A DNA stretch of 64,000 nucleotides from contig WLOQ01000009.1 in assembly GCA_009699245.1 (NCBI GenBank), forward strand, positions 1 through 64,000, given 5' to 3'. The stretch's first letter is position 1, and the number at the start of each line of letters is the position of its first letter. Both the position numbers and the translations under genes were made by a program. A model generated the notes under the pieces. The model was given only the letters and a program-made list of their open reading frames with translations, was not told the DNA's origin and ran no database searches. This document shows positions 7,031-11,198 of this stretch, piece after piece. The stretch is from Actinomycetota bacterium (GTDB lineage: Bacteria; Actinomycetota; Thermoleophilia; Solirubrobacterales; Solirubrobacteraceae).

Positions 7031-7282
7031 ATGACCCGTGCAGAGGTGCTCAACCTGATCGCCACCCATCTCGGTGATGAGCTCGATCTCGATCCCTCCG
7101 TGATCACCGAGGAGTCGAGCTTCCGCGAGGACCTCGAGGCCGATTCGCTCGACCTCTACACGCTCGTGCAGGAGCTCGAGGACACGTACGGCGTGACGAT
7201 GTCCGACGAGCAGGCCGCCCGCATCACGACCGTCGGGCAGGCCGTCGACTTCGTCATCTCCCAGGCCCCCGGCGCGCCCTGA
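7031..7282 (+). CDS. acpP: Acyl carrier protein
   Basis: This encodes 83 acidic residues with the phosphopantetheine site DLEADSLDLYTLV, where the Ser of DSL carries the prosthetic group. It carries growing acyl chains in fatty-acid synthesis and supplies PlsX. The length and four-helix pattern are typical. In the site the more common DSLD-x-V-E-L/M is DSLDLYTLVQELE. It is followed almost immediately, in the same reading frame after its TGA, by rnc. Confidence 0.95.
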   Translation: MTRAEVLNLIATHLGDELDLDPSVITEESSFREDLEADSLDLYTLVQELEDTYGVTMSDEQAARITTVGQAVDFVISQAPGAP

Positions 7283-7327
7283 GCCCTGCGACAGCTCAGC
7301 GATCTTCTCGACGAGCTGCCGGAGGAG

Positions 7328-7957
7328 TTGTACCGGCAGGTCTTCACGCACGCCTCCTGGAGCGACCGGCACGAGGACACCTACGTGCGCCTCGCCTTCC
7401 TGGGCGACAGCGTTCTGGGCCTCGCGATCTCGGCGCACATCTATCCCCGGCTCGAGGCCGAGCGGTACGGGGCCGGACGGCTGACGGTGATCCGTGCGCA
7501 GACGGTGTCCGGCACGGCGTGCCGCGAGGCCGGCGAGCGCCTCGGTGTCCCGGAGCGCCTGCGTCAGGCGGCACCGGACGGGTCGGTCCTGCCGGACACG
7601 GTGATGACGCGGCGGGTGCTGTCGTCCGTCGTGGAGGCGGTGATCGGCGCATGCTTCCTGCACGCCGGCTACGAGCGCACGGCGGCGGCGGTCGTCGAGG
7701 CCTTCGAGCCGGAGATGCTCCATGCGCTCGACCATCCGATCGACTTCAAGTCCGCACTCCAGGAGCGCCTCGCACAGCGGTCCGCGCTCGTCGCCTACGA
7801 GGTGACGCTCGAACTCGGTCCGCCGCACGAGCGCACCTTCGAGGTCCGCGCGATGGTCGACGGGGTGGAGGTCGGGAAGGGGTCGGGCCGTTCGAAGAAG
7901 GCAGCCGAGCAGGTGGCCGCGCAACGGGCGCTCGAAGCGCTCGAGGAGGAGTCGTGA
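7328..7957 (+). CDS. rnc: RNase III-family protein with altered active site
   Basis: The RNase III domain (VFTHASW, RLAFLGDSVLGLAI, VVEAVIGACFL) is followed by a dsRNA-binding domain (about the last 70 residues, ending GSGRSKKAAEQVAAQRALEAL). Family members cleave double-stranded rRNA precursors. Against E. coli numbering, D45 (FLGDS) and E117 (VVEAV) are kept, but E38 is Val, E41 is Ala, E65 is Ala and D114 is Ser, so the usual metal site is incomplete. TTG 7328 is the first conventional start; family-like residues (LRQLSDLLDELPEELYRQ) extend back to a CTG at 7286, just after the acpP stop, so a CTG start there is likely. Sits between acpP and smc as usual. Confidence 0.88.
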   Translation: MYRQVFTHASWSDRHEDTYVRLAFLGDSVLGLAISAHIYPRLEAERYGAGRLTVIRAQTVSGTACREAGERLGVPERLRQAAPDGSVLPDTVMTRRVLSSVVEAVIGACFLHAGYERTAAAVVEAFEPEMLHALDHPIDFKSALQERLAQRSALVAYEVTLELGPPHERTFEVRAMVDGVEVGKGSGRSKKAAEQVAAQRALEALEEES

Positions 7958-7958
7958 C

Positions 7959-10900
7959 ATGCATCTGAAGTCGGTCACCCTCAAGGGCTTCAAGTCCTTT
8001 CCCGACCGGACCACCCTGCAGTTCGCGCCGGGGGTCTCGGTCGTGGTCGGCCCGAACGGTTCGGGCAAGTCGAATGTCACGGACGCCGTGCTCTGGGCGA
8101 TGGGCGAGCAGTCGCCGCTCGCCGTCCGCGGCCAGTCGATGCAGGACGTCATCTTCGCCGGCGGCCATGGGGTCCAGGCGCGATCGAGCGCCGAGGTCGA
8201 ACTCGTGCTCGACAACAGCGACGGGCATGTCGATCTGCCGGTCGGCGAGATCTCGATCATGCGCCGGCTCGACCGCAATGGCGAGGGCGAGTACCGGCTC
8301 AACGGTGCGCGCTGCCGCCTCGTCGACGTGCTCGAGGTGCTTTCGGACACGGGTCTCGGCAAGGAGATGCACTCCGTCGTCTCGCAGGGCCGCGTCGAGT
8401 CGATCGTCACTTCCAAGCCCCGTGATCGGCGCCTGCTCATCGAGGAGGCCGCGGGCCTCGGCAAGCACCGCAAGCGCCGTCGTCGCGCGCAGCTCAAGCT
8501 CGACCGCACGCAGGAGAATCTCGATCGCGCGCTCGACGTGGAGCGCGAGGCACGCTCACGCCTGAAGCCGCTCAAGCGCCAGGCCGAGGCCGCCGAGCTG
8601 CACGAGCGCCTCGAGCGCCAGACGCTGGAGGCGCGCTGGGAGCTCGGGCGTGACGATCTGCGCGCACGCCGTGCGGAGCTCGCGACCGCTCAGGCTGAAG
8701 CCGTCGCTGCGCGCGCCACGCTGCAGGAGGCGCAGGCCGAGCTCGCCGAGATCGCCGCCCGCCGCGAGCTGGCCGAGCGCGAGCTGGCCGAGCGGACCGA
8801 GCGCCGCGAACGGATCGGCCATCGCGCCGAGCGCGCCCGTGCGGCCGTGGACCGCATCGAGCTGCGTCTGGAGCGCACCGCCGAGACCGGGCAGTCTCTC
8901 GCCGAGCGGCTCGAGCGCCGTCGTCACCGCCTTGAGGTGCTCAGCCAGCAGGCCGCTGCCGACGCGCCCGATGAGGTGGGGCGTGAGCGCATTGAGGCGC
9001 TGGAGGCCGAGGTCGCACAGCTCGACGCCGACCACGCGGCCGAGCTCGAGCGTGAGCTCGCGGCGCTGACCGTCGAGGTCGAAGCGGCCGCGGCGCGCAC
9101 GGCGACCGCCGCGCAGACGGTCGAGGAGCACGCCGCGGTGCTCGCCGGGGCCGAGCAGGCGTGCGAGTCCGCTCGCGCTGCACTGCGCGCCGCCGAGCGC
9201 GGCTCTGAGGAGGCGCGCCGTGATGCGGCGCGGATCGGCGCGGAGCTCGCGGCGGCCAATCAGTTCCTGCGCAGTCACGCGTCCGCGCCGCGCGGCGAGC
9301 GCTCGCTCGCCGACGACCTCGTCGTCGAGGCCGGGTTCGAGCGCGCGGTCGCTGCCGCGCTCGGCGGGCGCCTCGCCGCGGCGATCGTCGAGGATCTTGG
9401 ATCCGGTGAGGCGCTGCTCGGCCGCTTGGGGGCGGACGGCGGACGGGCGCTCGTGGCCGGACGCGGTCCCAAGGCCACCGACGCGACCGACGCACCCGCT
9501 CCTGGAGCGCGTCGGCTGACCGACCTCGTCAGCGGCCCGGAGGCGAGCGTCGCGATCGCCCGCGGACTGCTCGATGGCGTCTGGGTCGTTGAGGAGCTGA
9601 CGCAGCTGCCATCCGGGTTCACCGGAACGGCGGTCACCACGGCGGGCCGGGCGTTCTTCGGTGCGAGCGGCGAGCTGCTGCAGGCGCCGCAGGGTGGATC
9701 TGAGCGTGTGCTCGCCGAGCGCAACCGCCGTGATGGGCTGATCACGCAGTCCGAGGTGGCGGTGCAGGCCGAGCACGCGGCCATCGCCGCTGCAGAGGAG
9801 GCCGGCGGGGTCCTGGCCGCCGCCGAGGCGGCGCGTGAGCAGGCCGACGGCATCGTTCGCGACGCACGCCGCGAGCAATCGGCCGCGGCGGAAGCCGAGC
9901 GCCGCGCCCGCTGGCTGCTCGAGCAGCGCCGAGAGGCCCCCGAGCAGGGTGCGGGCGCTGTGCGCCGCGCCCAGATCGAGGGCGAGCTCGCGGCTGAGCG
10001 CCGGGTCGCCGAGCGCGCGCGCATCGAGCGCGAGGAGCGTGCCACGACGATCGAGCGCCTCCAGGTCGCCGTCGCCCGGGACACCGACCTCGTGCCCGCC
10101 TGCGCGCGCCTCGCGCAGGCGCTGACGAGCGCCCTGGAGGCGGTGCGCTCACGCGCGCTCGTGATCGAAGCGGAGCTCGACGAGGATCGCCGTGCCGGTG
10201 CCGGTGTGGCGGCTGAGCTCCGTGCGTGCGCTGCTGCGGAGGCTCAGGTGCAGCAGCGGCTGCGCGAGCGCGGCGAGCAGGTCACGCGCACCGAGGTGCG
10301 CGCCCAGCAGACGCGCGACCAGGAGGCCGACATCGCGGCGTCGCTCACCGAGCTCGCCCAGCGCCTGGGACTCGTAGCCGAGCCGGCCGACGAGGCGCTC
10401 GACCCGCAGGAGGCCGAGTCCCTGCGCACGCGCCTCGAGCGGCTGCTGCGCAGGCGCGAGCAGCTCGGTCCGGTCAATCCCCTGGCCAAGGCCGAGTACG
10501 ACGAGGCGCTCGCCCATGTCGAGGAGCTTGAGCGCCAGCGGACGGACCTGGAGACCGCGATGCGTGAGCTGCGCACGCTGATCCGCGACACCGACCGTCA
10601 GATCCACGAGACCTTCCAGGAGACGTTCGAGGCGGCCGCCAAGAACTTCGAGGAGCTCTCCGCCCACTGCTTCCCCGGTGGACGCGGTCGCCTGCGGCTC
10701 GTGCGCGAGGAGCAGCCTGCCCGCACCGTGATCGGCGGCGGCTCCTCCGAGGAGTTCGAGGCGGGCGTCGACGCCGAGGACGGCGCTGAGGCTGAGGAGC
10801 AGCGCGAACTCGGTGAGCCCGAGGAGGATCTCGGCGTCGAGATCGAGATCACGCCCGCCGGAAAGTCGATGAAGCGCCTGACGCTGCTCTCCGGCGGCGA

Positions 10901-11198
10901 GAAGTCGATGACGGCGATCGCCTTCCTGTTCTCGGTCTTCCTCGCCAAGCCGTGCCCGTTCTACATCCTCGACGAGGTCGAGGCGGCGCTCGACGATCTC
11001 AACATCGGCCGCTTCCTCGAGCTCCTGCGGGCGTACCGCGAGCGCGCGCAGTTCATCGTCGTCACGCACCAGAAGCGCACGATGGAGGCCGCGGACATGC
11101 TCTACGGCGTCTCGATGAGCGGCGACGGCGTCTCAAAGGTGGTCTCCCGGCGCCTTCCGCGTGCGCCGGATCCCACACCGGATCCCGTCCCCGTCTGA
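7959..11198 (+). CDS. smc: Chromosome segregation ATPase Smc
   Basis: This encodes 1079 residues. The N-terminal ATPase half has Walker A GPNGSGKSN (residues 31-39). Long Arg/Glu/Ala coiled coils flank a globular hinge at about 445-560. The C-terminal half has the ABC signature LSGGEKSMTAIAF (near 977) and Walker B FYILDEVEAALDD (D near 1005). Smc with ScpAB organises and separates replicated chromosomes. It is about 100 residues shorter than most Smc proteins (near 1180), with shortened coiled coils. ATG is 1 nt after the rnc stop, so translation is probably coupled. Confidence 0.97.
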   Translation: MHLKSVTLKGFKSFPDRTTLQFAPGVSVVVGPNGSGKSNVTDAVLWAMGEQSPLAVRGQSMQDVIFAGGHGVQARSSAEVELVLDNSDGHVDLPVGEISIMRRLDRNGEGEYRLNGARCRLVDVLEVLSDTGLGKEMHSVVSQGRVESIVTSKPRDRRLLIEEAAGLGKHRKRRRRAQLKLDRTQENLDRALDVEREARSRLKPLKRQAEAAELHERLERQTLEARWELGRDDLRARRAELATAQAEAVAARATLQEAQAELAEIAARRELAERELAERTERRERIGHRAERARAAVDRIELRLERTAETGQSLAERLERRRHRLEVLSQQAAADAPDEVGRERIEALEAEVAQLDADHAAELERELAALTVEVEAAAARTATAAQTVEEHAAVLAGAEQACESARAALRAAERGSEEARRDAARIGAELAAANQFLRSHASAPRGERSLADDLVVEAGFERAVAAALGGRLAAAIVEDLGSGEALLGRLGADGGRALVAGRGPKATDATDAPAPGARRLTDLVSGPEASVAIARGLLDGVWVVEELTQLPSGFTGTAVTTAGRAFFGASGELLQAPQGGSERVLAERNRRDGLITQSEVAVQAEHAAIAAAEEAGGVLAAAEAAREQADGIVRDARREQSAAAEAERRARWLLEQRREAPEQGAGAVRRAQIEGELAAERRVAERARIEREERATTIERLQVAVARDTDLVPACARLAQALTSALEAVRSRALVIEAELDEDRRAGAGVAAELRACAAAEAQVQQRLRERGEQVTRTEVRAQQTRDQEADIAASLTELAQRLGLVAEPADEALDPQEAESLRTRLERLLRRREQLGPVNPLAKAEYDEALAHVEELERQRTDLETAMRELRTLIRDTDRQIHETFQETFEAAAKNFEELSAHCFPGGRGRLRLVREEQPARTVIGGGSSEEFEAGVDAEDGAEAEEQRELGEPEEDLGVEIEITPAGKSMKRLTLLSGGEKSMTAIAFLFSVFLAKPCPFYILDEVEAALDDLNIGRFLELLRAYRERAQFIVVTHQKRTMEAADMLYGVSMSGDGVSKVVSRRLPRAPDPTPDPVPV

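What the first reader, a model, noticed from the sequence alone, without database searches (positions are those of the whole stretch)
7328..7957. RNase III lacking most of the metal-binding carboxylates
In E. coli numbering, E41 is Ala (RLAFLGDS), D114 is Ser (LSSVVEAV), E38 is Val and E65 is Ala. Only D45 and E117 remain. The dsRNA-binding domain is intact. The protein may bind but not cut dsRNA, use a rearranged site, or need a partner. It is the rnc in the standard chromosomal place, so if it is inactive, rRNA maturation must rely on something else.
Basis: partly seen in the sequence, partly recalled or inferred. Interest (0 to 1): 0.65.

Follow-up and report, generated by a model that had tools for sequence, protein, structure and literature searches.

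The report
RNase III with a rebuilt active site
A whole order of soil bacteria (Solirubrobacterales) carries an RNA-cutting enzyme, RNase III, that has lost two of its four standard catalytic acidic residues yet keeps the two most essential ones, gained a positively charged residue where the eukaryotic enzymes have one, and still has the double-stranded ribosomal-RNA stems such an enzyme normally cuts, so it is probably a remodelled enzyme and not a dead one.

Summary
The only RNase III of this Solirubrobacterales genome has E38V, E41A, E65A and D114S (E. coli numbering) and keeps D45 and E117. It is not a defect of one genome: E41A is fixed in all 73 distinct sequences of the order and traces to one event on its stem branch. 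It is absent from 53 other Thermoleophilia and 70 other Actinomycetota.

"Most metal-binding carboxylates lost" overstates it. Published structures place E38 and E65 on the RNA-contacting surface, and D114 touches no Mg directly. One direct Mg ligand is lost (E41). D45 and E117, which hold the second Mg, never vary in the order.

A new basic residue (Arg/Lys) sits at position 110, the catalytic-lysine "K6" position of eukaryotic RNase IIIs. All 50 tree rows lacking acids at both 41 and 114 have it, against 9 of 57 others.

Long 23S stems, with compensatory changes, flank 23S in 12/12 relatives, and 16S stems in 9/9. No second RNase III or Mini-III was found. AlphaFold gives an intact fold (pLDDT 94).

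Best reading: an active RNase III with a remodelled, arginine-assisted metal site (about 0.68). A non-cutting scaffold remains possible. Cleavage is not shown. The gene probably starts at CTG 7286, not TTG 7328.

The parts
7286..7957 (+). rnc, RNase III, 223 aa, probable CTG start at 7286-7288
   Evidence: TIGR02191 E 1.6e-41 (below its cut-off), PF14622 and dsrm over cut-off. CTG in the start column in 30/45 of the family sample; 26 have no ATG/GTG/TTG alternative
7385..7387 (+). Val at E. coli E38 (RNA-contacting surface)
   Evidence: role of E38 from PMC9291653
7394..7396 (+). Ala at E. coli E41 (MgA ligand): 73/73 in the order, 0/53 in the rest of the class
7406..7408 (+). retained Asp = E. 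coli D45 (MgB ligand), invariant
7472..7474 (+). Ala at E. coli E65 (RNA-contacting surface); never Glu in the order
7613..7615 (+). Arg at E. coli S110, the position of eukaryotic catalytic Lys 'K6'; order-specific gain
   Evidence: 69/73 basic in the order vs 3/55 elsewhere; aligned with the Lys of Dicer and DCL1
7625..7627 (+). Ser at E. coli D114 (63 S, 10 E in the order)
7634..7636 (+). retained Glu = E. coli E117 (ligand of MgA and MgB), invariant
7772..7774 (+). Ala at E. coli Q165 (+3 G recognition); also mostly Ala in the rest of the class
   Evidence: role from PMC9291653
7031..7282 (+). acyl carrier protein gene (identified from sequence; not scanned against a library); its TGA is one codon before the CTG, in the same frame
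7959..11198 (+). smc gene directly downstream (identified from sequence; not scanned against a library)

Best explanation
This is the genuine chromosomal RNase III of Solirubrobacterales. It is most likely still a dsRNA endonuclease that matures 23S and 16S rRNA, working with a remodelled active site. D45 and E117 keep the MgB site. The MgA ligand E41 and the second-shell D114 are gone. An Arg/Lys at position 110, one helical turn before 114, probably contacts the scissile phosphate and takes over part of the work of MgA/MgC, as lysine K6 does in eukaryotic RNase IIIs. Loss of E38 and E65 removes negative charge from the RNA-binding valley and should tighten dsRNA binding. Shown here: residue identities and conservation, single gene, intact predicted fold, conserved substrate stems. 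Inferred: that it cuts, and the role of Arg110.
For: D45 and E117 are invariant in 73 order sequences, with zero changes on a clade tree of total length 34 per site and with synonymous codon variation, while E38, E65, 110 and 114 change 13, 7, 3 and 4 times. All 50 tree rows without acids at both 41 and 114 are R/K at 110, against 9/57 others. Position 110 is exactly 7 before the catalytic Glu, like K217/E224 of KpDcr1 (PMC5357909; PDB title) and the Lys of Dicer and DCL1. The 23S flanking helix is present in 12/12 order genomes, 24-34 bp paired; 8 of 26 pairs carry changes on both sides, 21 cells against 5.9 +/- 2.2 shuffled. 16S stems are present in 9/9 order genomes. No other RNase III domain in a 99.4% complete genome. 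AlphaFold pLDDT 94.2; best Foldseek hit 7r97, the E. coli post-cleavage complex.
Against: In E. coli, E38V or E65A alone abolish activity in vivo, and E41A and D114A give only weak activity in excess Mg (Table 1 of PMC8708148). An E41A/D114A double mutant is recalled to have about 80-fold weaker Mg affinity (Sun et al. 2004, from memory; paper not held). D45 and E117 are 2 of 33 invariant columns, so their invariance alone is not decisive. The 110/114 coupling rests on few independent events (3 of 4 pairs, sign test p 0.25). Stems can persist for ribosome assembly without cleavage. No activity data exist.
Confidence: 0.68

Rival explanations
1. Pseudo-nuclease: the protein binds dsRNA and rRNA stems without cutting, as a scaffold or assembly factor like mitoribosomal mL44. 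RNase E/G, RNase J or exonucleases mature the rRNA.
For: Loss of E41, D114, E65 and, in this genome, E38, each harmful in E. coli. dsRBD intact. The model also resembles mitoribosomal RNase III-fold subunits. RNase E/G and RNase J are encoded. rnc null E. coli is viable (general knowledge).
Against: D45 and E117 never vary. The gain of R110 is tied to loss of the acids. 23S and 16S stems stay long and covarying. No other dsRNA endonuclease of the family in the genome.
Confidence: 0.2
2. Active but conditional enzyme: weak metal affinity makes it slow, or dependent on Mn2+, high Mg2+ or a partner protein, so that it acts mainly on very long stable stems such as pre-23S.
For: E. coli E41A and D114A work only with excess Mg. 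Stems here are long.
Against: Does not explain the gained basic residue at 110; no candidate partner is known, though none was systematically sought.
Confidence: 0.1
3. Relic under relaxation: the enzyme is decaying by drift in this order.
For: Stepwise loss of acids across the class.
Against: Present once in nearly every genome. A41 is fixed although 29/73 codons are GCG, one step from Glu GAG. 33 invariant columns including RNA-binding Lys.
Confidence: 0.02

Closest known systems
Bacterial RNase III (E. coli Rnc, A. aeolicus RNase III)
   Same: Fold, dsRBD, gene single-copy, D45 and E117, RL.FLGD motif, rRNA stems as likely substrates
   Different: E41->A, D114->S/E, E65 lost, E38 often lost, Arg/Lys at 110
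EcEEQ 'bacterial Dicer' (E. coli E38A/E65A/Q165A; PDB 7R97)
   Same: The window protein naturally lacks all three side chains (V, A, A); 7R97 is the best Foldseek hit
   Different: EcEEQ keeps all four catalytic acids; the window protein lacks E41 and D114. Product size untested
Eukaryotic RNase III (Rnt1p, Dicer, Dcr1) with catalytic Lys K6
   Same: Basic side chain at the same position, 7 before the catalytic Glu
   Different: Eukaryotes keep all four acids and add Asn N5; here the aligned N5 position is not Asn (Gly78/Thr79 in the window) and two acids are lost
Catalytically inactive RNase III-fold proteins (mitoribosomal mL44, plant RNC1, trypanosome KREPB)
   Same: Loss of catalytic residues in an RNase III fold
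   Different: They are extra paralogues or ribosomal parts of eukaryotic organelles; here it is the only chromosomal rnc and keeps D45/E117

Membership tests
Bacterial RNase III family (fold and orthology) | RNase III nuclease domain plus C-terminal dsRBD | tested here: met
   PF14622, PF00636 and dsrm over cut-off; AlphaFold pLDDT 94.2, Z 18.9-19.0 to 7r97 and 2nug
NCBI equivalog 'ribonuclease III' (TIGR02191) | Score over the equivalog cut-off (166.25 bits) | tested here: not met
   142.3 bits; also below it in many other Thermoleophilia and in 12 f22 genomes with an intact E41/D45/D114/E117 set, so a low score does not track loss of the catalytic set
Canonical catalytic RNase III | Four catalytic carboxylates E41, D45, D114, E117 | tested here: not met
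   A, D, S, E
Canonical catalytic RNase III | MgB ligands D45 and E117 | tested here: met
   invariant
Canonical catalytic RNase III | Metal-dependent dsRNA cleavage | not testable with these tools
   needs an assay
rRNA-processing RNase III | 23S and 16S flanked by long complementary stems in the same organisms | tested here: met
   12/12 and 9/9 order genomes, covariation; own assembly lacks 23S, so this is shown in relatives
Eukaryote-like K6-assisted RNase III | Basic residue 7 before the catalytic Glu | tested here: met
   R/K in 69/73
Eukaryote-like K6-assisted RNase III | Asn N5 | tested here: not met
   No conserved Asn at Ec 77-79 in the order; window reads Ser-Gly-Thr
EcEEQ-type Dicer-like RNase III | About 22-nt products | not testable with these tools
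   needs product sequencing

The most novel reading that the evidence does not exclude
A bacterial clade has swapped a metal-ligand carboxylate and its neighbour for an arginine at the eukaryotic K6 position, giving an RNase III that cuts with one fully liganded Mg plus a side-chain cation. Because it also naturally lacks E38, E65 and Q165, it may dice long dsRNA into about 22-nt pieces like the engineered EcEEQ.
Probability: 0.25. Interest if true: 0.78.

Novelty: new variant of a known kind. Interest (0 to 1): 0.57.

Why it matters
The four RNase III carboxylates are described as conserved in all RNase IIIs (PMC9291653). An entire order without E41 and D114, but with a basic residue at the eukaryotic K6 site and with intact rRNA stems, is a natural experiment on how much of the metal site is needed and whether a cationic side chain can replace a metal. 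If instead the protein is dead, the order would need another way to mature rRNA from long stems. Either outcome is directly testable with one purified protein.

Tried and rejected
Second rnc or Mini-III rescuing the function: none found. Sequence or assembly error: rejected, since the substitutions recur across the order. New acidic residues at the site: no newly invariant acidic column; position 109 is acidic in 84% of the order but Arg in the window. Eukaryotic N5: not gained. Low family score as a sign of lost catalysis: rejected, as 12 f22 genomes of the phylum score equally low with a full E41/D45/D114/E117 set. A first stem search with an unrestricted duplex fold was uninformative, ignored strand and crashed; it was redone with strand correction and ungapped helices. 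Literature: no paper in the library holds both RNase III and Thermoleophilia, or ribonuclease III and Solirubrobacter; subscription papers are not held.

Full report
What is there. The ORF is the sole RNase III found in a 1.95 Mb, 99.4% complete genome. It lies after the acyl carrier protein gene and before smc (identified from sequence). Relatives with names are Solirubrobacteraceae, Solirubrobacterales and Conexibacter, so the class is Thermoleophilia (class from general taxonomy). The protein matches the RNase III and dsRBD families but falls below NCBI's equivalog cut-off (142 against 166 bits).

The residues. Arg occupies position 110 and Ala position 165.

How far it extends. I collected 126 distinct Thermoleophilia sequences. 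All 73 of the own order have Ala at 41, never Glu at 65, and Ser (63) or Glu (10) at 114. All other 53 keep E41, and 52 keep E65. Position 114 is already variable across the class (D, A, N, E, G). D45 and E117 are invariant in every one. In 70 further Actinomycetota, E41, D45, E65 and E117 never change, and 114 is D or N. On a tree built without these columns, E41A is a single event on the stem of the order (SH-aLRT 99). E38 is lost repeatedly within the order (13 changes).

What the residues do in known enzymes. In the E. coli post-cleavage complex E41 and E117 hold MgA, D45 and E117 hold MgB, D114 touches no Mg, and E38 and E65 lie on the RNA-contacting surface, E38 explicitly distant from the cleavage site (PMC9291653). 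The E38A/E65A/Q165A triple mutant is an active, engineered 'bacterial Dicer'. The window protein lacks the same three side chains. In E. coli, D45A and E117 substitutions abolish activity in vivo; so do E38V and E65A; E41A and D114A are weak and need excess Mg in vitro (Table 1 of PMC8708148). The true loss at the metal site is therefore one direct ligand and one second-shell acid.

A compensating feature. Position 110 is Arg or Lys in 69 of 73 order sequences against 3 of 55 others. It is seven residues before the catalytic Glu, the place of the catalytic lysine of eukaryotic RNase IIIs. KpDcr1 K217 and Rnt1p K313 are described in PMC5357909; phmmer aligns the window Arg with the lysine of Dicer and DCL1. 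That lysine contacts the scissile phosphate and excludes the third Mg (PMC9291653). Among 107 tree rows, all 50 without an acid at both 41 and 114 are basic at 110, against 9 of 57 others. Within the order, when 114 is Glu the basic residue is lost in 4 of 10, never when it is Ser (63 of 63; Fisher p 0.0002, not corrected for kinship). Phylogenetically independent contrasts are few (3 of 4 pairs, p 0.25), so the coupling is suggestive only.

Is the substrate still there? The own assembly has no 23S. In 12 of 12 order genomes with a complete 23S and readable flanks, two of them of the own genus (G012, G013), the gene is flanked by a helix of 24-38 positions with 24-34 paired. Over 26 aligned pairs, 8 carry changes on both sides (21 cells; 5.9 +/- 2.2 in shuffles; slid controls 1-5). 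16S stems are found in 9 of 9 order genomes. Genomes of other orders with E41 have similar stems.

Selection. D45 and E117 show no amino-acid change on a clade tree of length 34 per site but vary in codon (GAC/GAT, GAG/GAA). A41 is fixed although 29 of 73 codons are one step from Glu. Because 33 columns of the order are invariant, this supports but does not prove catalysis.

Structure. AlphaFold on 62 sequences gives mean pLDDT 94.2 and pTM 0.80. The closest solved structures are E. coli 7r97 and A. aeolicus 2nug.

Mechanism and likelihood. I favour a working RNase III with an intact MgB site and an arginine that takes over part of the MgA/MgC role (0.68). A non-cutting scaffold (0.2) and a conditional, metal-hungry enzyme (0.1) remain. 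RNase E/G and RNase J are present and could serve the scaffold rival. No activity was or could be tested here.

Start codon. In 30 of 45 Solirubrobacteraceae-type sequences the start column reads CTG, and in 26 there is no ATG, GTG or TTG between the upstream in-frame stop and codon 8; some relatives have ATG or GTG in the same column. In the window the CTG is at 7286, one codon after the acyl carrier protein stop.

Noticed in passing
window 7280-7288: rnc appears to start at a conserved CTG one codon after the in-frame acpP TGA; 26 family members have no ATG/GTG/TTG alternative. Suggests translational coupling and a non-standard start codon kept across a family.
   Followed up: partly
L105 and L106 (genomes G140, G166, same family): Two 1.7 Mb genomes have a highly divergent RNase III (branch length 2.9 for L105) with Pro at E65 and, in L105, Lys at 110; ATG directly after the start column.
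   Followed up: no
L231-L242 (family f22 of the phylum): Twelve genomes have RNase III with Gly at E38 and a shorter loop before the D114 helix, but E41, D45, E65, D114 and E117 intact; an independent loss of E38.
   Followed up: no
L245-L247, L249, L251, L252, L254-L257, L263 and others: D114->N is common in other Actinomycetota (16 of 70), with all other catalytic acids kept, so D114 is the least conserved of the four.
   Followed up: partly
L150-L157, L159, L189-L191 (23S) and L174-L184 (16S): The 5' arms of the 23S and 16S processing stems share a similar core (CTTGAAAACT / CTTTGAAAACT), suggesting a common recognition or antitermination-like element.
   Followed up: no
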